From contig NZ_LECT01000042.1 in NCBI RefSeq assembly GCF_001027925.1, positions 1 through 64,000 of the forward strand: a DNA stretch of 64,000 bases, in the 5' to 3' direction. The notes beneath the pieces are model-generated. The model saw only the letters and a list, made by a program, of their open reading frames with translations. It ran no database searches and had not been told where the DNA came from. The translations under genes were made by a program, and so were the position numbers. This document shows positions 18,484-28,970 of this stretch, in pieces; within the stretch, counting starts at the first letter, position 1, and each line of letters starts with the position of its first letter. Origin of the DNA: Rhodopirellula islandica (GTDB lineage Bacteria > Planctomycetota > Planctomycetia > Pirellulales > Pirellulaceae).

Positions 18484-18524
18484 GGGGCTGTAGCTCAGTT
18501 GGTTAGAGCTGGGAACTCATAATT
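18484..18524 (+). repeat. left attachment repeat: orphan 5' half of the tRNA
   Basis: These 41 bases are identical to the first 41 bases of the intact tRNA at 28874-28914, from the acceptor 5' strand through the D arm and 5' anticodon stem to just past the CAT anticodon. After base 18524 the sequence diverges and the 3' half is missing. This is the attL side of a site-specific integration. The crossover lies somewhere in the shared block, probably at the anticodon loop. Confidence 0.9.
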
Positions 18525-18619
18525 GCTCCTCGCTATCCCTTCCCGCTAGTGTTTTCCCGTGTTTTGCGGTCTCAAACGAGTTTCACGAAGTCGATAGAAA
18601 CGCAAAAAACGACCCAACG

Positions 18620-18637
18620 GGTGTACCGGGGTGTACC
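18620..18637. other. candidate integrase arm-binding sites, left end
   Basis: GGTGTACC occurs twice in direct orientation, at 18620-18627 and 18630-18637, about 100 bp inside the left attachment repeat. The same 8-mer is paired in the same orientation near the right attachment repeat. Paired short direct repeats near both att sites are the usual layout of tyrosine-recombinase arm sites. Confidence 0.45.
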
Positions 18638-18660
18638 GCAAGAAATCGTGTCAGCGCACG

Positions 18661-18690
18661 AAAAAAGGCTGGTGGACAACGCCACCAGCC
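18661..18690 (-). terminator. intrinsic terminator at the left end of the element
   Basis: GGCTGGTGG (18667-18675) pairs perfectly with CCACCAGCC (18682-18690) around a 6-base loop. On the minus strand the hairpin is followed by six T residues (18666-18661). It lies 25 bp beyond the last minus-strand gene of the element and should end that operon. Confidence 0.85.
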
Positions 18691-18714
18691 CCAAGTTTTC
18701 ATAGTAGGCAACTG

Positions 18715-19098
18715 CTACCGATCGCCTTCTATCAAGTGCCGGACCACCGATAACGTCCGGTAGCGACGATGCCCCGCATCCGTGTGTCGCACCTCGAGCT
18801 TTCCAGTGTCAGCCATGCGTTTGAGAGTTGACTCCGAGATTTCCGAATAGCGGGCCACCTCTTTGGCTCCGCGGTGTCTCTCCGACAGGAACTCAATGTC
18901 ATCGGGCTCCAGCTTGTCGCGATGGTCATCGATAAACTGCTCGGTGCTCGACTTGGACGGCGTGTCGGATGCCAGCATGCCCAACTCGCTCTCTTTATCG
19001 ATGATCGCCAAACGAGCGCGGCAATCAATCAACGCCTTTTCGGCCTCGGCTATTTGCTCGATGGCTTCCCGGTAGAGGTCAAGAGTTCCACGGGTCAT
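18715..19098 (-). CDS. MerR/excisionase-like HTH protein
   Basis: 127 residues from the ATG at 19098, which overlaps the stop of the upstream gene by 4 bp. The N-terminal half is a charged helix (about 1-40). The C-terminal half (about 75-127) reads RGAKEVARYSEISESTLKRMADTGKLEVRHTDAGHRRY in two pieces; the order helix, turn, helix, then a GHRRY wing is that of MerR/excisionase DNA-binding domains. Its place as the last gene before the left attachment site suits an excisionase or regulator. The family is inferred from the motif, not from a search. Confidence 0.65.
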   Translation of the reverse strand: MTRGTLDLYREAIEQIAEAEKALIDCRARLAIIDKESELGMLASDTPSKSSTEQFIDDHRDKLEPDDIEFLSERHRGAKEVARYSEISESTLKRMADTGKLEVRHTDAGHRRYRTLSVVRHLIEGDR

Positions 19099-19325
19099 CG
19101 CGACCCCTCGCTTCCCGTCGTGGCGTTGTCCCTGAAATGCTGAACCAAGTCTTTCTCGTGGTACCAACGCCCAGACGGCTTCGTCGTTCCTGGGACCTTC
19201 AATCGGTGATCACGCTCCCAGGTGCTCCAAGCGTATCCCCATGTTTTGCAGACAACGTTCTCGTGGACGAAACCCATTGCCACCATCTGGGGATCGGTTT
19301 TCGGGGTCGGGTGTTGCTTTGCCAT
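19095..19325 (-). CDS. small unknown protein of the element
   Basis: 76 residues from ATG 19325, starting MAKQHPTPKTDPQ. It contains MGFVHENVVCKTWGYAWSTWERDHRLKVPG, a Trp-rich stretch that may be a small HTH or DNA-contacting fold (given in part only). The stop overlaps the next gene start by 4 bp, so the two are translationally coupled. The frame is open up to 19400, but that region holds an inverted repeat. I do not recognise a family. Confidence 0.5.
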   Translation of the reverse strand: MAKQHPTPKTDPQMVAMGFVHENVVCKTWGYAWSTWERDHRLKVPGTTKPSGRWYHEKDLVQHFRDNATTGSEGSR

Positions 19326-19357
19326 TGGAAAGCCTTTCGCAAACTCAGCGTTTGCTA

Positions 19358-19479
19358 AATGACCAAGGGCAGCATCCCGGTTAGAAAGCACGGGTATCAC
19401 GCCGCGCCGAACTTCTCGTCACTCCCTGCCTGCGCAGATCAACGCTTCGATGGTTCCCGAAATACTGCCCTTGGTCATT
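19358..19479. repeat. 122-bp unit bounded by 15-bp perfect inverted repeats
   Basis: AATGACCAAGGGCAG at 19358-19372 is the exact reverse complement of 19465-19479, with 92 bp between. It lies in the 318-bp gene-free gap 19326-19643 of the element, just upstream of the 76-residue gene. It may be a MITE-like insertion, a structured leader or a pair of regulator sites. Nothing else is seen in the gap. Confidence 0.5.
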
Positions 19480-19643
19480 CTCTTGGATTAAGACGTGATA
19501 CTTGCTTTTCGTCGCCACGGATCTGAGAAACACCGCGGCCAAAGTCGATCTTGCTTCTACCCTCAATCGACAAGCACAATTTCCTGGTTCTGGATCGTCG
19601 TGTCAAGCTCGCTTTTTGTTCTGGCAAATTTACCGGAACAGAT

Positions 19644-19958
19644 TCACTCCAGCGACGACGGTTCGAACTCGAACGGAACCGGGGCTCCGCGGCGGGATAG
19701 ATCATCAACCACTACCGGCCCCTCGTGCTTCGTCAGGCGGGTTTCCAGCTTGGCCAACGCACCGCGGCGGACTTGTTCAAAGTCGCAAGCATCGAGCAAC
19801 TTCACATTGCAATCCATCCGACGAATGCGTTCATCGTCAGACCACCCCGCCCGAATCATCGCGGTCTGTTCCGCGATGATTCGGGCGTCGGAAGGTAGAT
19901 GGGAACGCTTACAGTCTCGACCTCGATCATTTCGCCAGGACCCTCCGCCTGTTGGCAA
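19644..19958 (-). CDS. small phage-type protein of unknown function
   Basis: 104 residues if it starts at ATG 19958, inside the last codons of the tape-measure gene (overlap 19927-19958). An internal ATG at 19859 is possible. The central stretch SDARIIAEQTAMIRAGWSDD followed by ERIRRMD looks like an ordered helical segment, and the C-terminus is acidic. The position right after the tape-measure gene would suit a tail accessory protein, but no family is recognised. Low to moderate confidence that it is real. Confidence 0.45.
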   Translation of the reverse strand: MPTGGGSWRNDRGRDCKRSHLPSDARIIAEQTAMIRAGWSDDERIRRMDCNVKLLDACDFEQVRRGALAKLETRLTKHEGPVVVDDLSRRGAPVPFEFEPSSLE

Positions 19959-22554
19959 TCTTGGCGAGGTGCCCGGTCATCTCTTGCTGTAACTCGACTT
20001 GTTTTTCATTGAACTTAACGAGCTCTTGATCAGCGTTGAACGCTGGACCGAACGCACCAATCTGCGACGCGAACGACGCACTGGTCGATGCCACTGATCG
20101 CGACAAGTCGATGTCGGGACGATCGCCGACAGCTTCCTCGATCAGATTGCCGCGAAACTTGGCCAGCTCGCCTTTGCTGAGCAAACCCTTTGATACCAGC
20201 TTGCTTGCTTCTAACATCTTTTCCGCGATCTGAGCCCCGTCTGTCTTCAATGAGTCTTTGATTCGCGTTGCGTTTTGGATGTCGGGATCATTGCGGCGGA
20301 AATCGCTGAACGCTTGGGACCTTGCCCGCTTGCCAACCGAGTCACGAAGCTCCGGTGCGATGTCTTGCAAGACGTTGTTGATTTCACTCAACCGATCTTG
20401 CAGTTGCTCGGCAGGGCTTCGGATTTGCATCCGAAGTTGTTCGGCGGGGCTGCTTGCCCGGAAACGATCGGCCGCGGCGTCCATCGCTCGGCTGAGCAGT
20501 TCCGGCGAATTGGCGAACACTTCCTTGGCTTCTGCAATCGCCGCTTGGTACTGCTCGAGCGGTGTTTGCAGCTGGGCTGCCAGTTGCGTTGCCCGGTCGT
20601 TTGCTTTGAATTGAGCAATCGCGGATTCACGCGCCCGGCGGAACATCTCGGGACTGCCTTTGAACAATCGTGCAGCGTCAGAAAGCGCTTTCTGCAAAAG
20701 CTCGGTGGGGTTCATCAACGATTTCGCAAGTGCCTTTTGAGCTTGCACGAACGGGCTCGAGTCACGCACGGCTTGCGTCTCTTTGGCTGCAAACTTGCCA
20801 AATTGATCTTGGGTGATGTCACCCTTTGCCAACAACTCACGAGCAAGATCGATGCGTTCACGATAGCGTTCCAGTGAAGATTGGATCCCCTCAATCTCGG
20901 CCTTGAGCTTCAACCCTCGGGACGCTTCCTCTGCGGCGCGGGCTTGCTTCTCAAACGCTTCCGCATCACGTCGCATTGCTGCCTTCTTCTTGGCAACTGC
21001 ATCGGCCGCATCGATGTCCAGGGTCTTGCCAAGGTCGGACGGAACATCTTGCCCGGCGGCTCGGAAGGATTCACCGACGATTTCTTGCCGCTGCCTTTCG
21101 AGCTTGTCCGCTTTGTCCTGCCCCTTCCTCAGATCGGAGTCGGCTTTGAACTTGGCCAGCAGAAGCGGAATCCCAACAACCGCGGCGGTGATCAATGCAA
21201 TCGGTGAAAGCAGCAATGCGGCCAAACGTGTGATCCCTGAGACCATCACTCCCATCAGTGATTTGAACGCAGTCGCTGAGACCGCTACGAACGTCTTGAA
21301 ACCATTGGTCAGCGACGCGAACGCGGTCTTGATTGCAGCACCCCGGAAGACGCCTGCGAGAGATGCCCCAAGCTCGACAACCGACTTGGCAATTCCTTTG
21401 AGCATTCCACGGAATCCGCCACCGGCTGTCACTGCCCTCTTGCTGTTCGCGGCAAACAATCCAGCGGCTCCGGCTGCCTCCGTAACTGCAACCCGCGCCG
21501 TCACTGCATTGCCAGCAAGAACGGCGAAGCCTCGCCCACCTGCGAGCGGTGTGAGTGAAAGCAGACTCAACGTCGCCAGTGATCCCGCAAGGGTCGCGAC
21601 GCCTGAGCCCACGACGGTTGCCGCGGCTCCCACTCCCGTCAACGCAATTGCCAATCCGGCGGCAAACTGCGAGAGCTTCGGGAAACGTTCAATCAACTTG
21701 TTCACCCCTCCAACGATGTCGGCAAACTTGCTGACCAAAGCGGCGGCGGCTTCGCGAAGTGGCTCACCGATGGAGATTTTGAGCTGGGCCAATTCGGCCC
21801 TGAGTCGCTTCATCGAGTTGGCGAACCCATCACTGGTCCGGAGGGCATCGCCTTGGGCATCACGGGTGCCCTCGAGTGTGATCTCGAGAATGGCGAGCGC
21901 CTTCTCGTAACTGGTGAGGTTGTTCGGGTCGAATCCAAGCGTCAACGCCTTGGCCTTCACCGCGGCGGCGGTTGCTTGCACCCCAAAGGCTTTGAGGTTC
22001 TCGGTGTTGCCCACCAATCCGCCAATCAAGCGGCGGAACGCGTCGTCGTCGTCCATGACACCGAACGAAGCCAAGTCAATCGCCAGCTTGGTGACCGTCT
22101 TGGAAAGCTCCGCTGCCTCTTGCCGATCGAAACCCAGCGGAACAAACGTGTTTTGCGACTGAGCGAGTAAGTCGAGCATTTGCGACTGAGCGCGGCCAAC
22201 AGCTTTGCCGTAGTCTTTGCTCCATGTTCGCACTGCTGCCGACTGGTCTTTGAACACGGCTTCAAACATGCTGACCGTCTCGGCAAAATTGCCCGCGGCA
22301 ACCACGGCTTTTCCGAAACCGAATGCGGAGGCACCGCCGAATGCGGTCACGCCGACGCCCACCCTGGCAATCGATTTGCCAACCCCTGCGATGCTGTCAG
22401 AAACTTGCCGCATCTCGGCTTGAATCTGCGTGTTGACCGTTTTGACCGAATCAACCACGCCATTGAGAACCGATTTGATGTCGGTTGTGAGGCTGTCTTT
22501 CAGCGTCAGCGAAAACTCTGCTCCGCCTGCGTCAATTTGTGCTCGTGTGCTCAT
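19927..22554 (-). CDS. phage tail tape-measure protein-like
   Basis: 875 residues, starting MSTRAQIDAGGAEFSLTLKD. The early part has the usual tape-measure pattern: a helix region, a Gly/Ala-rich hydrophobic stretch (VGVGVTAFGGASAFGFGK near residue 65), then AAVRTWSKDYGKAVGRAQSQ and IDLASFGVMDDDDAFRRLIG. Hydrophobic segments follow at about 295-350 and about 445-470. The C-terminal half is strongly helical, with three imperfect repeats of an AxxxFKxSPELxxRA-type unit (near PTELLQKALSDAARLFKGSP, TPLEQYQAAIAEAKEVFANS and SPAEQLQDRLSEINNVLQ). In phages this protein sets tail length and forms a channel during DNA injection. Here it stands without recognisable tail tube, sheath or baseplate genes. 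The start overlaps the upstream gene by 4 bp. Confidence 0.85.
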   Translation of the reverse strand: MSTRAQIDAGGAEFSLTLKDSLTTDIKSVLNGVVDSVKTVNTQIQAEMRQVSDSIAGVGKSIARVGVGVTAFGGASAFGFGKAVVAAGNFAETVSMFEAVFKDQSAAVRTWSKDYGKAVGRAQSQMLDLLAQSQNTFVPLGFDRQEAAELSKTVTKLAIDLASFGVMDDDDAFRRLIGGLVGNTENLKAFGVQATAAAVKAKALTLGFDPNNLTSYEKALAILEITLEGTRDAQGDALRTSDGFANSMKRLRAELAQLKISIGEPLREAAAALVSKFADIVGGVNKLIERFPKLSQFAAGLAIALTGVGAAATVVGSGVATLAGSLATLSLLSLTPLAGGRGFAVLAGNAVTARVAVTEAAGAAGLFAANSKRAVTAGGGFRGMLKGIAKSVVELGASLAGVFRGAAIKTAFASLTNGFKTFVAVSATAFKSLMGVMVSGITRLAALLLSPIALITAAVVGIPLLLAKFKADSDLRKGQDKADKLERQRQEIVGESFRAAGQDVPSDLGKTLDIDAADAVAKKKAAMRRDAEAFEKQARAAEEASRGLKLKAEIEGIQSSLERYRERIDLARELLAKGDITQDQFGKFAAKETQAVRDSSPFVQAQKALAKSLMNPTELLQKALSDAARLFKGSPEMFRRARESAIAQFKANDRATQLAAQLQTPLEQYQAAIAEAKEVFANSPELLSRAMDAAADRFRASSPAEQLRMQIRSPAEQLQDRLSEINNVLQDIAPELRDSVGKRARSQAFSDFRRNDPDIQNATRIKDSLKTDGAQIAEKMLEASKLVSKGLLSKGELAKFRGNLIEEAVGDRPDIDLSRSVASTSASFASQIGAFGPAFNADQELVKFNEKQVELQQEMTGHLAKIANRRRVLAK

Positions 22555-22823
22555 TTGGGATCTCTTCGTAATCGTCGGTGGGCTGGGAAATCATGTTTGC
22601 GGCGGAGTGGCTCGGGGGTGGACTCACCGAGTTTTCGAAGCTCTTGTTTGACTGTTGCCACCCAATGTGAAAGCGCGAACTCGGCTTTGAGGTAGGTGTT
22701 TCGGATCTCGCCAGGGTCGTCCGCCTTGCTCGCGATCGACCGGCTGGTTTCTTCCATGTGCAGCAACAGTGACACCAGGTTGTCGGTCAGCTTCTCGGCG
22801 GCTTGCTGTGCTTCGTTTTTCAT
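22551..22823 (-). CDS. small helical protein upstream of the tape-measure gene
   Basis: 90 residues, MKNEAQQAAEKLTDNLVSLL at the N-terminus, helical and charged with a basic C-terminus (RRKHDFPAHRRLRRDPK). It is coupled by 4-bp overlaps to both neighbours. The slot just before a tape-measure gene is usually held by tail assembly chaperones, but I see no sequence signature for that, nor a frameshift slippery site. Confidence 0.6.
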   Translation of the reverse strand: MKNEAQQAAEKLTDNLVSLLLHMEETSRSIASKADDPGEIRNTYLKAEFALSHWVATVKQELRKLGESTPEPLRRKHDFPAHRRLRRDPK

Positions 22824-23077
22824 TTGGATTCCAACGATCGAGAGATTGATTTTTCAATGAGTGCTTCGCGGTATCGCTCGGACTTCCAAGGACCGACGCT
22901 GAGAAGCCATCGGGTGATGTGGTGATAGAAGTAGGCCCCATCGGTGCCTGGCATGCCCTTCTGAATCCACGTGTGGACTGTGCTGCGTTCCACCTCAAAT
23001 GCCCTCGCAACATCGGCCTGAGTGCCGAGTCGAAAGTCCTCATCGGTCTGGACGTCCTGTTGTTGTTTTCTGGCCAT
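22820..23077 (-). CDS. terminase small subunit-like HTH protein
   Basis: 85 residues with a winged-HTH/excisionase-type region LGTQADVARAFEVERSTVHT then WIQKGMPGTDGAYFYHHITRWL. The phrase order (helix, VxRxTVxxWxxxGMPG, then I-x-R-W-L) is typical of phage DNA-packaging Nu1/terminase small subunits, which recognise the pac or cos site. A plain regulator cannot be excluded. It is the first gene after the hairpin at 23167-23206 and overlaps the following gene by 4 bp. Confidence 0.6.
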   Translation of the reverse strand: MARKQQQDVQTDEDFRLGTQADVARAFEVERSTVHTWIQKGMPGTDGAYFYHHITRWLLSVGPWKSERYREALIEKSISRSLESK

Positions 23078-23166
23078 TTCAACCCTTGTGCATGCGAGAA
23101 CGACGAACTGACGAGGCGATTACCTCCACGTTTCGAACCAGGAAGGACCCGTGAAGGGGCCCCGGT

Positions 23167-23206
23167 GAGCCCCGTCGCCAAACTCCACAGAAAAGCGACG
23201 GGGCTC
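23167..23206. terminator. strong hairpin between two element operons
   Basis: GAGCCCCGTCGC (23167-23178) pairs perfectly with 23195-23206, a 12-bp GC-rich stem and a 16-base loop. It lies in the 182-bp gap between the coiled-coil gene and the packaging-like gene. No T-tract follows on either strand, so it may be an attenuator or RNA-stabilising hairpin rather than a full terminator. Confidence 0.5.
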
Positions 23207-23259
23207 GTTGTGGGCCGGATGCTGGCGACAGTTTCAACGCCAGCCTCCCACTCGGTGCA

Positions 23260-23964
23260 TCACTCAGCAATCATTTTTGCTCGCAGTTCGTCAACCAGCT
23301 GTTCGCATTGTGCGACGGCGTTTTTGGCCTCCGACATCTCGAATTCCCAACGAGCAATGCGATCCCGGTAAACCTGCTTGTTGCCGTAGTCATTGGTTCG
23401 CTCGGCGGTGCTTAAGAATCCCTGATTCTTCTCAACCGACGCCTTCGCTGATTTCAGACGTGCGTGTGCCCACTGGAGATCCTGTTTCGCGGCAAATGAT
23501 TGCAACTGCAACTTAGAACTGGCAAGTCTCACCAGGTTCTCGCGGTCAGCCGGGCGCGAAGTTGACTGTTCTTCCGACTCGAAAACTTGCATCCTCACCT
23601 TCTTTCGAGATCGCTTGTTGCTGGCAATCACATCCTCGAGGCTTCCGTTCACTTCTTGCAATTGCCGCAGCAGAACACCCCGACGGTCTGCGTCAGCCCC
23701 AGACAACTGCTTGCCTGCCAATAGCTGTTCGATGTGCTTTTCATCGAGCGACGTCAATTCTGCCTGAATCGGTGCAGTTGCTGCTTGGTGCTCTTCGGTC
23801 GCTCGTTCGTCGTCGGCGTCCAAGGTAGCGATGATCCCTCGCAACTCCTTGGCGCGGGCCGATGCAACATCCGCCTCGGCAATCCGGCGTTTCAGTGCAT
23901 GCCGCTGCGACAGGCGGGAACGCTCGGCTTCTGCCTTGTCTTCCTGGTCGATCGCTTCACTCAT
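23260..23964 (-). CDS. coiled-coil protein of unknown function
   Basis: 234 residues, almost entirely charged helix with heptad-like spacing: MSEAIDQEDKAEAERSRLSQ at the start, QAELTSLDEKHIEQLLAGKQ in the middle and AKNAVAQCEQLVDELRAKMI at the end. No catalytic motif or membrane segment is seen. In phage genomes such proteins may be scaffold-like or head-tail proteins, but that is a guess. It overlaps the upstream peptidase-like gene by 4 bp and is the last gene of its operon before the hairpin. Confidence 0.6.
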   Translation of the reverse strand: MSEAIDQEDKAEAERSRLSQRHALKRRIAEADVASARAKELRGIIATLDADDERATEEHQAATAPIQAELTSLDEKHIEQLLAGKQLSGADADRRGVLLRQLQEVNGSLEDVIASNKRSRKKVRMQVFESEEQSTSRPADRENLVRLASSKLQLQSFAAKQDLQWAHARLKSAKASVEKNQGFLSTAERTNDYGNKQVYRDRIARWEFEMSEAKNAVAQCEQLVDELRAKMIAE

Positions 23965-24500
23965 CTTTCGATTGCCTCCCTTGTTTGGAAAATTGCTTCC
24001 AGTACTTCCGCTTGGTCCAACTGGCCAGCGAGATACAAACGGCTCGCAAGCGTTAAAATTTCGTCGCGATGGTCTTCAATAATTTTGTGGGCAATGTGTC
24101 GTGCGAAATACACACGGCTGGCCCAACGCTCTGGTTCTTTCTCACAGCCTTCTATTGCCCATCTCGCGACCTTGACATCATCAGGCGGCGAGAACCAAGA
24201 CGGCTCTTTGGCGGGCGTTTCAGGCGACGTATGGGGCTCTGGCAAGTGACCGAGATCGACCGAGCCCTGCCCCATCTCACCCATCGGTCGTGGAGGCGGC
24301 TCGTGGAGACCGGCGAGGAACTCCGCGGCCGGTCCGGCAGAGACCGCGAACGCGCGGTCGTCAGGCGAAAGTTCATCCAGTAGCACGTGCCCTGAATCCA
24401 ACGTCAGTTCGGCATGGGTGCACTTGCCACCCAGGACGATGGCGGCAACAGCATGCCCCGCCTCGTGAATTGCGGTTTCCCATCGGTGGTCAGTTGTCAT
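23961..24500 (-). CDS. orphan M41 (FtsH-type) peptidase domain protein
   Basis: 179 residues from ATG 24500. HEAGHAVAAIVLGG places the zinc-binding HExxH at residues 12-16. Further parts match the FtsH protease domain pattern: AVSAGPAAEFLAG, then PDDVKVARWAIEG, where an Asp could be the third zinc ligand, and a closing helix IIEDHRDEILTLASRLYLAG. FtsH itself has membrane helices and an AAA+ ATPase before this domain; both are absent. The protein could be a free soluble protease acting on a host or phage protein. The frame is open to 24575, but the conserved part begins at 24500, so that ATG is used; it overlaps the upstream gene by 11 bp. Confidence 0.72.
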   Translation of the reverse strand: MTTDHRWETAIHEAGHAVAAIVLGGKCTHAELTLDSGHVLLDELSPDDRAFAVSAGPAAEFLAGLHEPPPRPMGEMGQGSVDLGHLPEPHTSPETPAKEPSWFSPPDDVKVARWAIEGCEKEPERWASRVYFARHIAHKIIEDHRDEILTLASRLYLAGQLDQAEVLEAIFQTREAIER

Positions 24501-24774
24501 CTTGGTCGCCCCCTTCATCTTCCTCGACCAAGACAAAGCCGTGCACGCCGTGTTGCCCATAGTCTGCATTGACACCTTGAAGCATGCTGACCGACTTCAA
24601 CCATTGCTGGCCATTTGCATCAACTCGCCACGGTTGCACCAAACCACTATCCATGGCATTGATCAGGCCACGGGTCGGATGGCTTGGCTTTGGAAAAAAC
24701 TTTGGTTGCACCTGGATGTCCTTAGGGCTTGGCGTTTGTTCGGCTCCAAGCAGTCGCCGGAGGAAGTTCATCAT
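24490..24774 (-). CDS. small unknown protein of the element
   Basis: 94 residues, MMNFLRRLLGAEQTPSPKDI at the start, a middle part HPTRGLINAMDSGLVQPWRV and an acidic tail ending EEDEGGDQDDN. It is coupled to its neighbours: 4-bp overlap with the zinc-ribbon gene upstream and 11 bp with the peptidase gene downstream. No family recognised. Confidence 0.55.
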   Translation of the reverse strand: MMNFLRRLLGAEQTPSPKDIQVQPKFFPKPSHPTRGLINAMDSGLVQPWRVDANGQQWLKSVSMLQGVNADYGQHGVHGFVLVEEDEGGDQDDN

Positions 24775-25013
24775 TGGTCGGTCTCCATGTCGTGAATCTT
24801 ACGGGTCAGATCTTCGAATTTTCCAGTCACTGGAATCGGGGGTTCAAAAACTACAAGAAAAATTCCCGAGCACGATCGACACACGCACCTCCGCGACTTG
24901 CTTCCGTCACCCGGCCTGTCTGTCTTCACGATGATCGGGTCCACGTCCTGGCATCGTGGACATGCTGGGATGTCAACGAACACCATCGGTGCGGCTTTCC
25001 AATTACGGCTCAT
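24771..25013 (-). CDS. small zinc-ribbon protein
   Basis: 80 residues from ATG 25013. Two cysteine pairs, ACPRCQ (near residue 17) and CVCRSCSG (near residue 43), form a probable four-cysteine zinc ribbon like those of transcription factors and small phage DNA-binding proteins. The frame is open to 25064, but those codons lie close to the repeat array and lack the fold. It is the first gene after the iteron array in the direction of transcription. Confidence 0.6.
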   Translation of the reverse strand: MSRNWKAAPMVFVDIPACPRCQDVDPIIVKTDRPGDGSKSRRCVCRSCSGIFLVVFEPPIPVTGKFEDLTRKIHDMETDQ

Positions 25014-25072
25014 GAGTCTTCGCTCCTCTGGTTGGAAAACCTTTTCCCAAGAGAGCAAGCCCACTCTAAGAA

Positions 25073-25322
25073 GGTTTTTATGAGAGGGGTTCTATGAGGG
25101 AGGTTTCTATAAGAAGGGTTTCTATAGTAGTGGACACGCCTATGGACATGCCTATGGACACGGGTATGGACATACCTATGGACATTGCTTGGACATTCGA
25201 TGGACAGGAAACGCACCGACAAGCCTGATTTCACCCCTCTACTTGCAGGGGCAGGCCCCCTTTGGATGGACATTGCTTGGACAATGCTTGGACATTCCTT
25301 GGACAACGCTTGGACATTCACC
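25073..25322. repeat. composite iteron-like array, possible replication origin
   Basis: Three sets of short direct repeats stand side by side. Four units of 14-15 bp headed GGTTTCTAT or GGGTTCTAT start at 25073, 25087, 25102 and 25117. Four 12-bp units headed GGACA and ending TAT start at 25132, 25144, 25156 and 25168, followed by 11-bp units at 25180 and 25191. After a gap, five 11-bp units of the form GGACAWTGCTT start at 25268, 25279, 25290, 25301 and 25312. The 11-12-bp period is about one helical turn. The array ends inside the last codons of the possible replication gene. Iterons beside an initiator gene are typical of replication origins; a centromere-like or regulator array is the alternative. 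Confidence 0.7.
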
Positions 25323-26106
25323 GGGAAGCACCTCCCAGTCGTTGCTCGATTGCACGCTGCATCGCGAGCGTAATCTCCCTCTGGCCTTTGCGTGCCTCGG
25401 TCTGCTGAACCTTTTCTTCGACAAGTGACTCCATCAGTTCCGGCTGGCTCATCCGATTCGAATACCACATTCGGCGACCATCGAGACTGGCCCGAACATA
25501 GAGCTTCCGGCTGTCGAGTGATTCAATCGTTGAACGAACTTGCCGGCGGGTCAGCAATAGGTCGCTGTGCACTCCCCTGGCCAGTTCACCGGCGTTCGAA
25601 CAGCCATTCGCCATGGTGTTGATGAAATCGAACGAAAGCCGATGACGGTCGCGATCGCCGACGCCTGCATAGATCGCACACAAGATCGCAAAGTCACGCC
25701 AGCACCATCGTTTGCTGTCCCTGGCATCCCATAACAGGTCAGCACGAACTCGCACCATGCGGCGACCACCTGGCACGTTGTCGATTTTTTGCTGGATGGC
25801 TCGCATCGCCGGGCGATTGATCGGCGATTGAATAGCCACACCGAGAACTTCCGCTGCCCAGAAGATCCGCTGAACCTCCCGCGACTTGGGTTTCTCTGTT
25901 CCTGGATGCTCTTCGTGGTAGGCCTCCGCAACATCCTCCACCTCATCGGGGTCTCGGTCGTGTGCGTTGTCCGCCGTCACCTGCAAGCAGTAGTCCACGA
26001 TCTGCGCAATGGTGAATTGGCGTAAATCGTCGTCAACATCGTTCAGGTTCTTGTTGAGGCGAATCGCGGCAAGCGGGAATTGGAAATACTTATCGCTTAC
26101 GCTCAC
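25318..26106 (-). CDS. possible replication initiator or DNA-binding protein
   Basis: 262 residues, MSVSDKYFQFPLAAIRLNKN at the N-terminus. The C-terminal half shows FAILCAIYAGVGDRDRHRLS, then LLLTRRQVRSTIESLDSRKL followed by YVRASLDGRRMWYS, which reads as a winged helix (recognition helix then a two-strand wing), and a charged last helix. I recognise no named family. The reason to suspect a replication role is position: its 3' end runs into the iteron-like array. A wHTH protein of similar size is coupled upstream by a 4-bp overlap. Confidence 0.6.
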   Translation of the reverse strand: MSVSDKYFQFPLAAIRLNKNLNDVDDDLRQFTIAQIVDYCLQVTADNAHDRDPDEVEDVAEAYHEEHPGTEKPKSREVQRIFWAAEVLGVAIQSPINRPAMRAIQQKIDNVPGGRRMVRVRADLLWDARDSKRWCWRDFAILCAIYAGVGDRDRHRLSFDFINTMANGCSNAGELARGVHSDLLLTRRQVRSTIESLDSRKLYVRASLDGRRMWYSNRMSQPELMESLVEEKVQQTEARKGQREITLAMQRAIEQRLGGASR

Positions 26107-26444
26107 TGGTCATCGCTCCCAGCAAACTCAGCGGCGACGATCACCGCGGCCGATGAACCCGATGAAGTCTTTCGACGTCCCCCGTTCTCGACTGCGAGGC
26201 CGTCGCGGAGTAATTCCAATGCAATGGAACAGATCGACTGAACTTTAAGATTCAAGACCTCCGCCCATTGCTCGCGGGTTAATCCGCGGCGTCCTGCCTT
26301 ACGCAACAGGATCAAAGCAAGCTGTTTTCGTGCTTGCTGCTTCGGCTTGACCACGATGAACGCTTGGGCTTTCGTCGCCCTTGCGTGTTGGCCGTGGTCG
26401 AAAAGTGGCGTCATCTCACTGGACGTGGTCGGAGAGTCCGACAT
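26103..26444 (-). CDS. winged-HTH-like small protein
   Basis: 113 residues. The stretch KQLALILLRKAGRRGLTREQ followed by WAEVLNLKVQSICSIALELL and then LRDGLAVENGG has the helix-turn-helix-wing order of DNA-replication or transcription wHTH domains. N- and C-terminal tails are low complexity. Its stop overlaps the start of the possible replication gene by 4 bp, so both are made together. Nothing clear is seen in the 115-bp gap before it except a short dyad near 26523-26555. Confidence 0.6.
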   Translation of the reverse strand: MSDSPTTSSEMTPLFDHGQHARATKAQAFIVVKPKQQARKQLALILLRKAGRRGLTREQWAEVLNLKVQSICSIALELLRDGLAVENGGRRKTSSGSSAAVIVAAEFAGSDDQ

Positions 26445-26559
26445 AATGTGTTCATCCTTGGTTGATGTTGGTTGTGCCGCGCGTCCTGGTCAGACTTAAC
26501 AGCGGCATGAATCGAATCAGAAACGGCTCGAGCTTCGGCTTGGGCCGTTTCGCATTGGC

Positions 26560-26799
26560 TCAAACCCATTGCTTCCGGGGCATCGGAACATCTGTGCGAC
26601 GATGCTTTGCTCGGGCTGGTTGACTGGCTCGCCTCGCCTTAAAGGCGTCCAAGTCTTCACGACTGACGCTCCATCTGGCTCGTTGCTTACCGAGCCCGAT
26701 GTTGACAGCTGGCAACTCTCCAGCCGCGATCAGGTTTCTCACTTGGTCGAATCCACAACCAAGCTCTGCTGCCACCTTTGGAACACTCAATCCCATCAT
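26560..26799 (-). CDS. excisionase-family HTH protein
   Basis: 79 residues. LSVPKVAAELGCGFDQVRNL then IAAGELPAVNIGLGKQRARW and VSREDLDAF form the typical MerR/excisionase-type (HTH_17) fold, with a basic tail. Such proteins bend DNA at att sites or regulate early genes. It begins just after the terminator that closes the integrase operon, so it probably has its own promoter. Start 26799 (MMGLS) or the next codon. Confidence 0.7.
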   Translation of the reverse strand: MMGLSVPKVAAELGCGFDQVRNLIAAGELPAVNIGLGKQRARWSVSREDLDAFKARRASQPARAKHRRTDVPMPRKQWV

Positions 26800-26816
26800 T
26801 CAACCTCGCTTGCGAA

Positions 26817-26852
26817 ACAAAAAAAAACCGTGCCACCAAATTGGCGACACGG
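26817..26852 (-). terminator. intrinsic terminator of the integrase operon
   Basis: A hairpin at 26828-26852 (CCGTG...CACGG with further imperfect pairing around AATT) is followed on the minus strand by a run of T (26827-26819). It lies about 80 bp after the stop of the 202-residue gene and ends the integrase transcript. Confidence 0.8.
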
Positions 26853-26933
26853 CAATGTTTAACGGGGTCTAAGCGACAGAGAAGACTTAAGCCCCGCTGT
26901 CTTTAAGCGTTTTAAGTTTCTTAGGTTTTGGCT

Positions 26934-27542
26934 TTAAATCTGATCGTTCTCCCAGCATTTCTTCTTCACGCGAGAGTGAAATTCATCACGGTGAACGAAG
27001 TATCGGTATTGCGTACTGCCTGGCTTCTGGAACCTCCAAATGCCGGCATGAGCGGGGTCAGTGCTGTCTGCTTCTTTGTTTCGCGTTGGTGCAGACCCGC
27101 TAAGATCCCCCGAACGCACCTCGATCCAGCTGTTGCTTCTGAGGACCTCTGACAATTTTGGCTTACCGCTTCCAGTTGGCACCGATGGTGGTTCAACCGT
27201 TGGAAGGGAGGCCGCCCACCGGGCGAGATTGTCCGCCTCGGCTCTTGCAAATTTGTGCCGTTGAATGGCCCCAGGGTCCATTAGGCACAAGTCCCCAATT
27301 TCTTCCATGCTTTGCAGTATCAACGCAGCGATTGCTGGGTACACCTCGGGACAGTCCAGCACGGGCTGTTCCATGAATGCGGTCGCATTGCGGATCATGA
27401 TCGGGATCGACCGCTTTGCTGCTTCACGCTTGTAGATTTCAGGGGACTCCAAATCAGGCGTGCTCATCGACAGTGTCGTCAGCATAGACCTCAACTCTTT
27501 GGTGAAGCCTTCGAAGCGTTTCAGGTTGCAATTATCATTCAT
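26934..27542 (-). CDS. unknown protein coupled to the integrase
   Basis: 202 residues from ATG 27542, which overlaps the integrase stop by 4 bp. The N-terminal half is helical (LKRFEGFTKELRSMLTTLSM, then PEVYPAIAALILQSMEEIGD). The C-terminal part, SNSWIEVRSGDLSGSAPTRN and IWRFQKPGSTQYRYFVHRDE, looks like a small beta-rich domain that could bind nucleic acid. No family recognised. The coupling suggests a role tied to integration, such as a recombination directionality or accessory factor. Confidence 0.6.
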   Translation of the reverse strand: MNDNCNLKRFEGFTKELRSMLTTLSMSTPDLESPEIYKREAAKRSIPIMIRNATAFMEQPVLDCPEVYPAIAALILQSMEEIGDLCLMDPGAIQRHKFARAEADNLARWAASLPTVEPPSVPTGSGKPKLSEVLRSNSWIEVRSGDLSGSAPTRNKEADSTDPAHAGIWRFQKPGSTQYRYFVHRDEFHSRVKKKCWENDQI

Positions 27543-28720
27543 TTCACACAGCCTTTTTCTGGTTTGCCATCCAAGAACCACTGGCGAACGTGTTCACACA
27601 CAGCCTTCACTCGCTCTTGTTCGATCCCTTCCCGGTAGCCGCCCCTCATGCTGCTGTCTTTGTGCCCCATGACATAATCGACCGCCTCGGGATCCCTAGC
27701 ACCGCTGGCGACCGTCGCGAAAGTGTGCCTCAGGCTGTAGTGGCCCACGTGAGCCTTGTTGATCCCAATGGCAGTTTTGAGCTTGCCAAACGCCTGGGTG
27801 AGCGGCCGCGTTGTGCTTCCATCGACTGACCACGGTTGTCGACGCTTCGTCAGGAACGCCAACGGCTTCAATCGTTCCGATGTCGTGAATGGCTTTTGCT
27901 CAATCGCGAGACGCAGCTCGGCAACGGTTTCTGGCCACAACCAGCAACCTCGAGCTACCCCGGTTTTGCCCCTCGGCTCGCCCAACCAATTATTGGCGAA
28001 GTCAATGTGGTCGATTCGCAGCCTGCCGATGTCGGCGGTGCCGTAGGCCGCATTGATTCCAAGCAGGATGAAGGATCGCATTGGTTGTGACGCTGCGTTG
28101 AACAGCGTCCATACCTCCTCAACCGTGAACTCCTTTGCGTGCTGCTTGGCTTCGTGCTTCAGCAACGCTGACTTGGCGACTGCCTTCAATCCGACCTTGT
28201 AACGAATGTCCCGCTTGGTCGCCTCGATGTCGTTGGCGTAATTGAACAGCACACGCACCAAACGCAGGTTGTTGTTGATGGTGATCGGGCTCCACGTGCT
28301 CGGCAGTGATCGCCGGTATCGCTCGAAATCACCAGGGCGAAGCGAATCGAGTCGGCGACCCTTCCCAAAGAACGCGGCCACGTCCTTGACCATGCCGTGA
28401 TACTCATTGAGCGTCACCTTCGTCAATTCGTCGCGCTCGTGCATCAACTCTTTCGAATCCATGAACGCATTGCAAAGCCAGCCAACCGATACACCCGCGA
28501 GTGCAACGTCAGGGTCGCGGCCTTCCAGCAGCGCTAGCTTGGTCCGCTCCCATTCATTTTCAGCGGCAACAGGATCGGCCCACACGCCGAAGTAGTGGAG
28601 TTTGCCGCGGACCTTCTTGGCCCACTGACCGGAAGAATGCGCGAAGAGGGGAAAATCCTTTCGCGGCTTGGCGGGTTTGCTGGCTCTTTTTCCCGCTTCT
28701 GTTACATTGCGTCTTGTCAT
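27539..28720 (-). CDS. int: tyrosine recombinase (integrase)
   Basis: 393 residues. An N-terminal arm-binding-like region (1-75), a core-binding SAM-like domain (about 78-170) and the catalytic domain (about 195-375). Catalytic residues seen: Lys252 in RGKTG, His327 and Arg331 in HYSLRHTF, His353 in VMGHKD and the nucleophile Tyr362 in GGYREGI. The first catalytic Arg, expected near residue 227 in a GxRxSE-type motif, is Gly in AAYGTADIGRL. The gene reads away from the right attachment repeat, 154 bp from it, as expected for an integrase of this element. Confidence 0.93.
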   Translation of the reverse strand: MTRRNVTEAGKRASKPAKPRKDFPLFAHSSGQWAKKVRGKLHYFGVWADPVAAENEWERTKLALLEGRDPDVALAGVSVGWLCNAFMDSKELMHERDELTKVTLNEYHGMVKDVAAFFGKGRRLDSLRPGDFERYRRSLPSTWSPITINNNLRLVRVLFNYANDIEATKRDIRYKVGLKAVAKSALLKHEAKQHAKEFTVEEVWTLFNAASQPMRSFILLGINAAYGTADIGRLRIDHIDFANNWLGEPRGKTGVARGCWLWPETVAELRLAIEQKPFTTSERLKPLAFLTKRRQPWSVDGSTTRPLTQAFGKLKTAIGINKAHVGHYSLRHTFATVASGARDPEAVDYVMGHKDSSMRGGYREGIEQERVKAVCEHVRQWFLDGKPEKGCVK

Positions 28721-28833
28721 GATTGCTCCTCACAAGCAGTCTTGATTGCCTCGTCAGTGTTGACGCACTGGCGGGGCGTTTTGCTATCACCAGACTCGTT
28801 CTGGTGCGTGCATCATACGAATTTTCGCTTCCA

Positions 28834-28853
28834 GGTGTACCGCCTGGTGTACC
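28834..28853. other. candidate integrase arm-binding sites, right end
   Basis: GGTGTACC occurs at 28834-28841 and again at 28846-28853, 20 bp inside the right attachment repeat, matching the pair at 18620-18637. Nearby dyads lie at 28755-28770 (CAGTG/CACTG) and 28788-28806 (CACCAG/CTGGTG). A TTGACG at 28760-28765 may be part of a promoter now serving the tRNA. Confidence 0.45.
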
Positions 28854-28873
28854 AACGCGAAAAAGTTTCACTA

Positions 28874-28914
28874 GGGGCTGTAGCTCAGTTGGTTAGAGCT
28901 GGGAACTCATAATT
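28874..28914 (+). repeat. right attachment repeat (attR side)
   Basis: Identical over 41 bp to 18484-18524. It forms the 5' part of the intact tRNA, so the element supplied or preserved this half when it integrated. Confidence 0.9.
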
Positions 28915-28947
28915 CCTAGGTCGCGGGTTCAAGTCCTGCCAGCCCTA
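28874..28947 (+). tRNA. tRNA with CAT anticodon (Met or Ile2)
   Basis: A full cloverleaf can be drawn. The acceptor stem pairs GGGGCTG with CAGCCCT, with one G-U at the end. The D stem pairs GCTC with GAGC, the anticodon stem GGGAA with TTCCT around loop CTCATAA, and the T stem GCGGG with CCTGC around TTCAAGT. The discriminator is A and the CCA end is not encoded. CAT can be elongator Met or the Ile2 tRNA modified by TilS; this cannot be decided by eye. The tRNA is the integration site of the element on its left. Confidence 0.93.
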
Positions 28948-28970
28948 CCTTTTCTTTTGCTCGCCCTTTC

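What the first reader, a model, noticed from the sequence alone, without database searches (positions are those of the whole stretch)
18484..28914. Compact tRNA-integrated element with tape-measure and packaging-like genes but no capsid
Seen: a 41-bp direct repeat from a tRNA at both ends, an integrase beside one end and a one-strand coding layout with ATGA overlaps. Gene content is integrase, excisionase-like HTHs, a possible replication protein with iterons, an M41-like peptidase, a terminase-small-like HTH, a coiled-coil protein and a tape-measure protein. No capsid, portal, large terminase, tube, baseplate or lysis gene is recognisable. Established: satellites such as PICIs and P4 borrow helper structural genes and are about this size. 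Inference: a planctomycete phage satellite that may alter helper tail length or packaging, or a decayed prophage.
Basis: partly seen in the sequence, partly recalled or inferred. Interest (0 to 1): 0.78.

Follow-up and report, generated by a model that had tools for sequence, protein, structure and literature searches.

The report
Planctomycete satellite with own tape-measure gene
A 10-kb parasite of phages sits in a planctomycete tRNA gene and carries one major phage structural gene, the ruler of the phage tail; related elements in nine other genomes keep such a gene too, which suggests that swapping tail rulers is a common way for these parasites to hijack phage tails.

Summary
Window 18484-28917 is an integrative element between repeats (41 bp exact) made of the 5' half of a tRNA-Met; the empty site is contiguous in 4 of 12 same-genus genomes. 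It carries an integrase, an excisionase-like HTH, a Rep-like protein with 11-bp iterons, an HTH related to the N-terminus of a phage small terminase, and an 875-aa full-length tape-measure protein (TMP). No capsid, portal, large-terminase or tube gene was found. It is not a lone decayed prophage: in its family 11 loci in 10 of 241 genomes carry a TMP in a satellite-like element, 8 of them between tRNA-derived repeats; 5 also carry one recognised head gene. One satellite TMP clade is rejected (AU p=1e-5), and one satellite pair is under purifying selection (dN/dS 0.08-0.11). Best reading: a phage satellite that builds its own TMP into a helper siphophage's tail, as shown for Vibrio PLEs in 2026 (PMC12987554, which also maps TMPs in some cf-PICIs). 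The planctomycete group differs in gene content and, in my searches, is unreported. Tail-length change is not supported for the window. Particles, helper and packaging are unproven.

The parts
18484..18527 (+). attL-like repeat: 5' part of tRNA-Met (41 bp exact, 43/44 overall)
28874..28949 (+). intact tRNA-Met (CAT); first 44 nt are the attR-like repeat
27539..28720 (-). tyrosine integrase, 393 aa; relatives in satellites L104/L114 (46%), L110/L117 (43%), L082 (37%), L111 (29%) and in L106 (32%)
26934..27581 (-). 215 aa, unknown
   Evidence: no significant family
26560..26799 (-). 79-aa HTH, excisionase/regulator type
   Evidence: PF12728 2e-8, phrog_66 5e-7; relatives in L110, L117, L114/L104
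26103..26444 (-). 113 aa, phrog_1123 (unknown function); relatives in satellites L069, L068 and in elements L108, L113
25318..26106 (-). Rep-like protein, 262 aa; relatives in 5 other genomes of the family
25178..25327 (.). 11-bp iterons (TGTCCAAGNNN on - strand) just downstream of rep; same unit next to rep in L029
24771..25064 (-). 97-aa Cys-rich (zinc-ribbon-like) protein; relatives in satellites L080 (59%) and L104 (39%)
24490..24774 (-). 94 aa, unknown
23961..24575 (-). 204 aa with HEAGH motif, weak M50/M41 peptidase similarity
   Evidence: PF13398 1e-4, PF01434 3e-3, both below cut-off
23260..23964 (-). 234-aa coiled-coil protein; weak relatives in satellites L104 and L111
22820..23077 (-). 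85-aa HTH related to the N-terminal part of the phage G624 small terminase; 56% identical relative of 93 aa in satellite L104
22551..22823 (-). 90 aa, predicted helical hairpin (mean pLDDT 73), no relative found
19927..22554 (-). tape-measure protein, 875 aa, full-length relative of siphophage TMPs
19848..19887 (.). perfect 17-bp hairpin about 40 nt downstream of the TMP stop codon (no T-run)
19644..19958 (-). possible 104-aa ORF after TMP; spans the hairpin, doubtful
18715..19167 (-). 150-aa MerR/BldC-like HTH (matches below cut-offs); relative in L108 (33%)

Best explanation
The element is a phage satellite (integrative, helper-dependent). It excises with its own integrase and HTH factor and replicates from Rep and iterons. 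It is packaged in particles made largely by a siphophage related to IMG/VR phages G624/G625. Its own tape-measure protein replaces the helper's TMP during tail assembly, giving chimeric tails. Its TerS-like DNA-binding protein helps direct its DNA into helper procapsids or hinders helper packaging. Shown here: the element, its precise insertion, the full-length TMP, the recurrent TMP-satellite organisation, and selection on one satellite TMP pair. Inferred: excision, replication, packaging and chimeric tails. Satellite nature about 0.85; TMP built into helper tails about 0.6.
For: Precise insertion with empty sites in relatives. TMP 55% identical over 875 aa to that of siphophage contig G624; residues 76-225 and 768-875 are 81-87% identical although third codon positions there are only 39-56% identical, i.e. 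kept by constraint. Hydrophobic segments lie at similar places as in the phages. Eleven TMP loci in satellite-like elements in 10 of 241 genomes, 8 with tRNA-derived end repeats. Genes shared between the window and one or more of these: integrase, HTH, zinc ribbon, TerS-like HTH, coiled coil (weak), p113. Satellite TMPs of G594: dN 0.018, dS 0.219 by NG86; 0.019, 0.168 by YN00. One satellite clade rejected, AU p=1e-5. Mechanism demonstrated elsewhere: Vibrio PLE11 puts its own TMP into virions and tmp deletion cuts transduction by about 99.9% (PMC12987554, section 8 read).
Against: No particle, circle or helper has been seen. The host genome has no match to the lambda-type portal PF05136 or the GpA terminase PF05876; other phage types were not searched for. 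No homologue of the phages' putative tail-assembly chaperone (named by position) turned up in the satellites, although PLEs carry one. The 90-aa and 106-aa genes before TMP gave no fold match. The sat144 gene that follows TMP in 8 of the 11 loci was not found in the window's genome. No cos/pac site was sought. Selection on the window's own TMP is only indirect (near-saturated dS against G624).
Confidence: 0.62

Rival explanations
1. The TMP is a weapon, not a part: a decoy or dominant-negative tape measure that poisons tail assembly of invading phages. The element is then an anti-phage island that spreads by other means.
For: Tail assembly is a known target of defence carried by satellites and prophages (PMC11364771 passages; Rta in PMC12987554 passages). 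No lambda-type portal or GpA terminase in the host genome. One TMP-like gene (L083) lies beside genes that read as restriction-modification genes.
Against: Replication modules, TerS-like HTH, and in other members a capsid or head-protease gene point to virion making. Both ends of the TMP are conserved; a decoy need not keep all of it. PLE tmp mutants lose transduction.
Confidence: 0.2
2. A decayed prophage: deletion left integrase, early genes and the TMP.
For: TMP is a full-length relative of TMPs in siphophage contigs. L079 keeps, besides a head protease and TMP, a 167-aa gene before TMP that matches a gene of phage L078 (5e-10), as a partial prophage might.
Against: Similar organisation in 10 genomes with different replication modules and TMPs; purifying selection on a satellite TMP pair. 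In G624 the TerS and TMP genes are about 10 kb apart, whereas here only one 90-aa gene separates them.
Confidence: 0.07
3. A satellite whose TMP sets a different tail length to block the helper or fit the satellite.
For: In PLE11 the shorter TMP gives tails about 10 nm shorter. In L079, L080 and L082 the TMP (1124, 1017, 1085 aa) is longer than that of the best-matching phage held (678-699 aa), though similarity is to part of the protein only.
Against: Window TMP 875 aa against 852-937 aa in the four nearest phages; the G594/G598 satellites (817-821 aa) are slightly shorter than theirs, so the direction is mixed. Odds raised from 0.06 to 0.08 on recheck because of L079, L080 and L082.
Confidence: 0.08

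Closest known systems
PLE (PICI-like elements) of Vibrio cholerae, PLE11/PLE1/PLE4
   Same: Satellites that encode their own TMP; chimeric tails shown experimentally (PMC12987554, section 8 read).
   Different: Other phylum; the PLE helper ICP1 has a contractile tail, while the nearest phage relatives here read as siphophages. PLEs have TMP and TAC (PLE11 also a baseplate hub). Here TMP lies near a coiled-coil gene and often sat144, and no TAC homologue was found. Sequence comparison with PLE genes was not done.
cf-PICIs (capsid-forming PICIs) with tmp genes
   Same: Some encode a putative TMP (Extended Data Fig. 10 legend of PMC12987554).
   Different: cf-PICIs make their own capsid with a set of head genes (recalled). 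None was found in the window element; other members showed at most one recognised head gene, capsid or protease.
PICIs including SaPIs
   Same: Integrase, excision/regulator HTH, replication gene, TerS-like gene (PICI content recalled). SaPIbov5 uses a homologue of the helper capsid protein (PMC8569155 passages), as L082 and L111 might.
   Different: [quoted passage not shown] The TerS-like protein here lacks the C-terminal part.
P4-like satellites
   Same: L082, L104 and L111 carry large primase-type proteins; P4 has a primase-helicase (recalled).
   Different: No P4 hallmark genes (psu, delta, sid: recalled) showed up among the window's matches; the window has an iteron Rep instead.

Membership tests
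phage satellite (general; 7-20 kb, att repeats, integrase, regulation, replication, no structural genes: start of abstract of PMC13376191 in the listing) | att repeats and integrase | tested here: met
phage satellite (general) | size 7-20 kb | tested here: met
   10.39 kb; 8 repeat-bounded TMP members 10.4-17.7 kb
phage satellite (general) | regulation and replication genes | tested here: met
   HTH genes; Rep-like protein with conserved iterons, by conservation only
phage satellite (general) | no complete virion gene set | tested here: met
   for the window; for relatives, of which only the first 25 of 49 and 25 of 37 families are shown. One structural gene (TMP) is present, so the strict 'no structural gene' form is not met
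phage satellite (general) | mobilised by a helper phage | not testable with these tools
   no helper known; no PF05136 or PF05876 match in the host genome
PLE | own TMP | tested here: met
PLE | TAC gene beside TMP | tested here: inconclusive
   no homologue of the phages' putative TAC; folds of two genes before TMP gave no match
PLE | Vibrio host | tested here: not met
   host family is planctomycete (MAG title of a relative)
PLE | PLE core genes | not tested
   no PLE sequence was compared
cf-PICI | own capsid gene set (recalled) | tested here: not met
   no head gene among 17 ORFs
PICI | own complete TerS (recalled; not in all PICIs) | tested here: not met
   only the N-terminal HTH part, 85 aa
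PICI | divergent regulator genes beside integrase (recalled) | tested here: not met
   recognised genes all on one strand
P4-like | P4 primase-helicase and psu/delta/sid (recalled) | tested here: not met
   no such family among the matches

The most novel reading that the evidence does not exclude
Planctomycetes host a large, previously unreported group of phage satellites whose core hijacking tool is the tail tape measure, not the capsid. A common frame (integrase, HTH, coiled coil, TMP slot, often the sat144 gene, end HTH) takes up TMPs from different phage lineages again and again, sometimes with a single capsid or protease gene, so that satellites can retarget to new helpers by exchanging one tail gene.
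Probability: 0.5. Interest if true: 0.85.

Novelty: new variant of a known kind. Interest (0 to 1): 0.72.

Why it matters
In March 2026 PLEs were described as the first family of satellites known to build their own TMP into tails, and their authors left open how general and how useful this is (PMC12987554, section 8 read, passages of section 9). A phylogenetically remote group that holds TMPs of more than one origin, with one satellite pair under clear purifying selection, makes tail manipulation look like a general satellite strategy. It also gives natural replicates to find which TMP parts must match the helper and which give the satellite its advantage. My searches of the paper library found no report of satellites in planctomycetes: 'planctomycete' with 'phage satellite' 0 papers; 'satellite', 'tape measure', 'planctomycet' 0; 'phage-inducible chromosomal island' with 'planctomycet' 2, on other subjects by title and start of abstract. 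A looser search (3 of 4 terms, 329 papers, 15 listed) showed none in its titles. The library lacks most subscription journals, and no bioRxiv preprints are held.

Tried and rejected
Decayed prophage: rejected as the leading reading because of recurrence and selection. Tail-length change: lengths overlap and the direction is mixed. Recent recombination as the cause of the conserved TMP C-terminus: third positions there are 48-56% identical, against 31-51% in the other windows; 768-842 is the highest of the 12, but still far from recent. Homology of the window's p104, coiled coil and p90 to the sat144, coiled-coil and 106-aa families of the L069 group: hhalign gave nothing; only with L104 and L111 did a weak coiled-coil link appear, and coiled coils can match by composition. 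Fold searches of p90 and the 106-aa protein: no match at E<=0.001, from models of mean pLDDT 73 and 69. Pattern scans for the M50-like protein and for Rep in viral contigs and genome contigs found no relative. The phylum-wide sample for Rep found only the window's genome (1 of 392), so Rep relatives (6 of 241 with the own genome) are known only from this family. A padloc scan was not run. Loci L105, L107 and L112 have a 739-1024-aa protein in the TMP slot with no PHROGs match and no hydrophobic segment; they are not counted as TMPs. L106, L108 and L113 showed no TMP. L083, L075 and L084 were left unresolved.
Full report
OBSERVATION. The element runs from 18484 to 28917. Its ends are the first 44 nt of a tRNA-Met (41 bp exact, 43 of 44 overall); the intact tRNA is at 28874-28949. 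Joining the two window flanks gives a sequence that aligns without a break (about 2,170 bp) in 4 of the 12 same-genus genomes compared: G546 (94%), G538, G536 and G537. G539 aligns with one gap; in the other seven the left flank or the tRNA does not align in place. Two of these, G543 and G544, hold other elements at the same tRNA, with no match to the TMPs held (no profile scan). Insertion was therefore precise. The genes I recognise are on the - strand with five 4-bp overlaps.

WHAT THE GENES ARE. The integrase and an excisionase-type HTH pass Pfam cut-offs; a MerR/BldC-like HTH matches below cut-off. The 262-aa protein has no significant family but has relatives in 5 other genomes of the family (6 of 241 with the own genome). 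In the window, in L029 and in L033 the gene is followed by directly repeated units of about 11 bp, and the unit TGTCCAAGNNN is shared by the window and L029 although the proteins are only 45% identical. This is what an iteron-binding replication initiator would show. The 85-aa HTH matches the N-terminus of the small terminase of phage G624 (47% over 47 aa; that protein: phrog_57 1.7e-10; the large-terminase ORF that follows and overlaps it: phrog_15 1e-57). A 56% identical protein of 93 aa occurs in satellite L104 (itself phrog_57 3e-4), again without the C-terminal part, so the short form is a kept form and not fresh decay. The M50/M41-like call is weak.

THE TAPE MEASURE. The 875-aa protein matches TMP families (phrog_1533 1e-7), but its best relatives are full-length TMPs in two IMG/VR contigs, 55% and 42%. 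Those contigs, G624 and G625, read as siphophages (TerS and TerL confirmed by profile for G624; portal, capsid and tail roles read from position and recalled; contig completeness is not given). Between window and G624, residues 76-225 and 768-875 are 81-87% identical, 1-75 49%, 226-617 31-44%, 618-767 49-59%. Third codon positions are 39-56% identical in the conserved parts and 31-51% elsewhere, so this is constraint, not recent exchange. Hydrophobic segments near 300-330 and 430-470 have counterparts in the phages.

IT IS ONE OF MANY. A TMP profile found 16 loci in 14 of 241 family genomes (18 rows, two of them second pieces). I fetched the surroundings of the other 15. Seven of the 16 are satellite-like (window; G594 twice, L068 and L069; G598 contig C810, L072; G555, L080; G532, L082; G396, L079). 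Six lie among genes that match phage structural genes (G598 contig C95, G590, G399, G539, G393, G530). Three are unresolved (G493, G536, G499; two of them on short contigs). A profile of the gene that follows TMP in several of them (sat144) hit 19 places in 13 of 241 genomes, not in the window's genome. Four places were already held; I fetched 10 more; 5 were not fetched. Four of the 10 carry a TMP (L104 and L111, phrog_1533 1e-76 and 2.5e-90; L109, phrog_9959 6e-33; L110 by its match to L109), three a large unrecognised protein in the same slot (L105, L107, L112), three none (L106, L108, L113; the first and last near contig ends). In all: 11 TMP loci in satellite-like elements of 10 genomes; sat144 was found in 8 of the 11 (not in the window, L079, L082).

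BOUNDS. Eight of the 11 have direct repeats overlapping a tRNA: window 10.39 kb (Met), L069 15.35 (Val), L079 16.87 (Arg, 92% repeat), L080 17.72 (Val), L082 16.08 (Arg), L104 16.80 (Arg), L110 16.33 (Lys), L111 11.72 (Ser). L068 and L109 have serine recombinases and no such repeat was found; L072 is a contig fragment. The five with window-type integrases (window, L082, L104, L110, L111) duplicate tRNA positions 1 to 38-44; the other three and the Rep or slot elements L033 and L105 duplicate the 3' part.

STRUCTURAL CONTENT. Window: TMP and the TerS-like HTH only (17 ORFs scanned). L082 and L111 add a capsid protein (C-terminal, head part of phrog_4523, 1e-50 and 5e-56). L079, L109 and L110 add a head protease (phrog_53 3e-51 for L079, phrog_94 1e-54 for L110; L109 by 2e-122 similarity to L110). 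L079 also has a 167-aa gene just before TMP that matches a gene of phage L078 lying between its capsid and TMP genes (5e-10); its role is unknown. No element showed capsid and protease as separate genes. PHROGs scans of 108 ORFs from L068, L069, L072, L079, L080, L082 and of 65 ORFs from L104 (with L114), L109, L110 (with L117), L111 (65 of 76; TMP, integrase/recombinase, capsid and protease ORFs left out) showed no portal, large-terminase or tube family. Only the first 25 of 49 and 25 of 37 families are printed, so weaker single matches could be hidden.

LINK OF THE WINDOW TO THE GROUP. By tblastn or phmmer the window shares its integrase with L114 (the int of L104, 46%), L117 (L110, 43%), L082, L106 and L111; the 79-aa HTH with L110, L117, L114/L104; p113 with L108, L069, L113, L068; the zinc ribbon with L080 (59%) and L104; the TerS-like HTH with L104 (60% over 68 aa); the coiled coil weakly with L104 and L111 (3e-7, 5e-7); the MerR-like gene with L108. 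Its 104-, 90- and 94-aa ORFs and the 215- and 204-aa genes have no relative among the loci held. The group is thus a mosaic, not one conserved genome.

HISTORY AND SELECTION. On a 14-row TMP tree the window TMP is sister to phage G624 (100/99), while G594a, G594b and G598-C810 form another clade (100/100). In a 9-row tree the same two groups appear, with G590 now beside the second; holding the four satellites together costs 144 log units, AU p=1e-5. The satellite group was named from gene content before the trees. So more than one transfer between phages and satellites is supported; its direction was not tested. The other TMPs look like further lineages by best match (L080/L082; L079; L104/L111; L109/L110) but were not put on a tree. 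Between the two G594 satellites TMP has dN 0.018, dS 0.219 (NG86) or 0.019, 0.168 (YN00), with no amino-acid change in the first 225 residues; the neighbouring satellite genes are about as similar in DNA (95-97% over three blocks), so the two copies share descent within satellites. For window against G624 the values are 0.38/1.58 (NG86) and 0.41/1.10 (YN00), near saturation.

MECHANISM. In Vibrio PLE11, published in March 2026, the satellite's own TMP is found in its virions in place of the helper's and its deletion cuts transduction by about 99.9% (PMC12987554, section 8 read in full; other passages). [quoted passage not shown] the stem Planctomyc does not occur in its main text. By analogy the planctomycete satellites most likely make chimeric tails. 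The advantage may be escape from tail-directed defence or from helper control, or compatibility with another entry route (inference; the role of TMP in entry is recalled). Against a simple resident-helper model, the window's genome has no PF05136 portal and no PF05876 terminase. Of the 10 satellite genomes 8 have such a portal and 5 such a terminase, at places outside the satellites. A helper of the window's element would then come from outside or belong to another phage type.

HOST. The window's genome is in the same family.

LIMITS. No experiment; helper, particles, circle and packaging site unknown. Two genes before TMP have no fold match. Counts are for this family only (241 genomes searched). 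In a phylum sample of 392 genomes the single TMP sequence matched 7 with the own genome; the surroundings of the other six were fetched but not classified by profile. TMP lengths: 624-1124 aa in the 11 satellites, 638-937 aa in the 11 rows that I labelled phage, one of them (L084) unresolved.

Noticed in passing
L029:11044-19073: Another element with the Rep relative and the same iterons: ParB-like gene, Rep, one HK97-type major head protein (phrog_10 3e-33) and a serine recombinase; end repeats not found.
   Followed up: partly
L033:6417-14271: 7.8-kb Rep element between 45-bp repeats in tRNA-Ala with 11-bp iterons, a weak head/protease-like 185-aa gene (phrog_4523 2e-4) and a coiled coil; no TMP seen.
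   Followed up: partly
window, L082, L104, L110, L111 versus L069, L079, L080, L105, L033: Window-type integrases duplicate the 5' half of the tRNA, the other integrases the 3' part: 5 of 5 against 5 of 5.
   Followed up: partly
L083:9232-11646: TMP-like 804-aa gene without hydrophobic segments, near genes that read as restriction-modification (no profile) and a recombinase fragment.
   Followed up: no
L105:8720-11794, L107:11793-14012, L112:154-2391: A separate family of 739-1024-aa proteins in the TMP slot, before sat144, with no PHROGs match and no hydrophobic segment.
   Followed up: partly
L079:10363-10866: 167-aa gene directly before the satellite TMP matches a gene of phage L078 between capsid and TMP (5e-10): a second tail or head-tail gene in a satellite?
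   Followed up: no
L131, L132: Other same-genus genomes (G543, G544) hold different elements in the same tRNA-Met; in G543 two seem to lie in tandem.
   Followed up: partly
window 25010-25468: A 152-aa reading frame over the iterons on the - strand has 30% similarity to the same place in L029; probably a by-product of the shared iterons.
   Followed up: no
phage record HQ632857 (H1): A virus recorded from the alga Tetraselmis has a TMP related to the window's N-terminal part, 35% over 203 aa; the host label may not be the real one.
   Followed up: no
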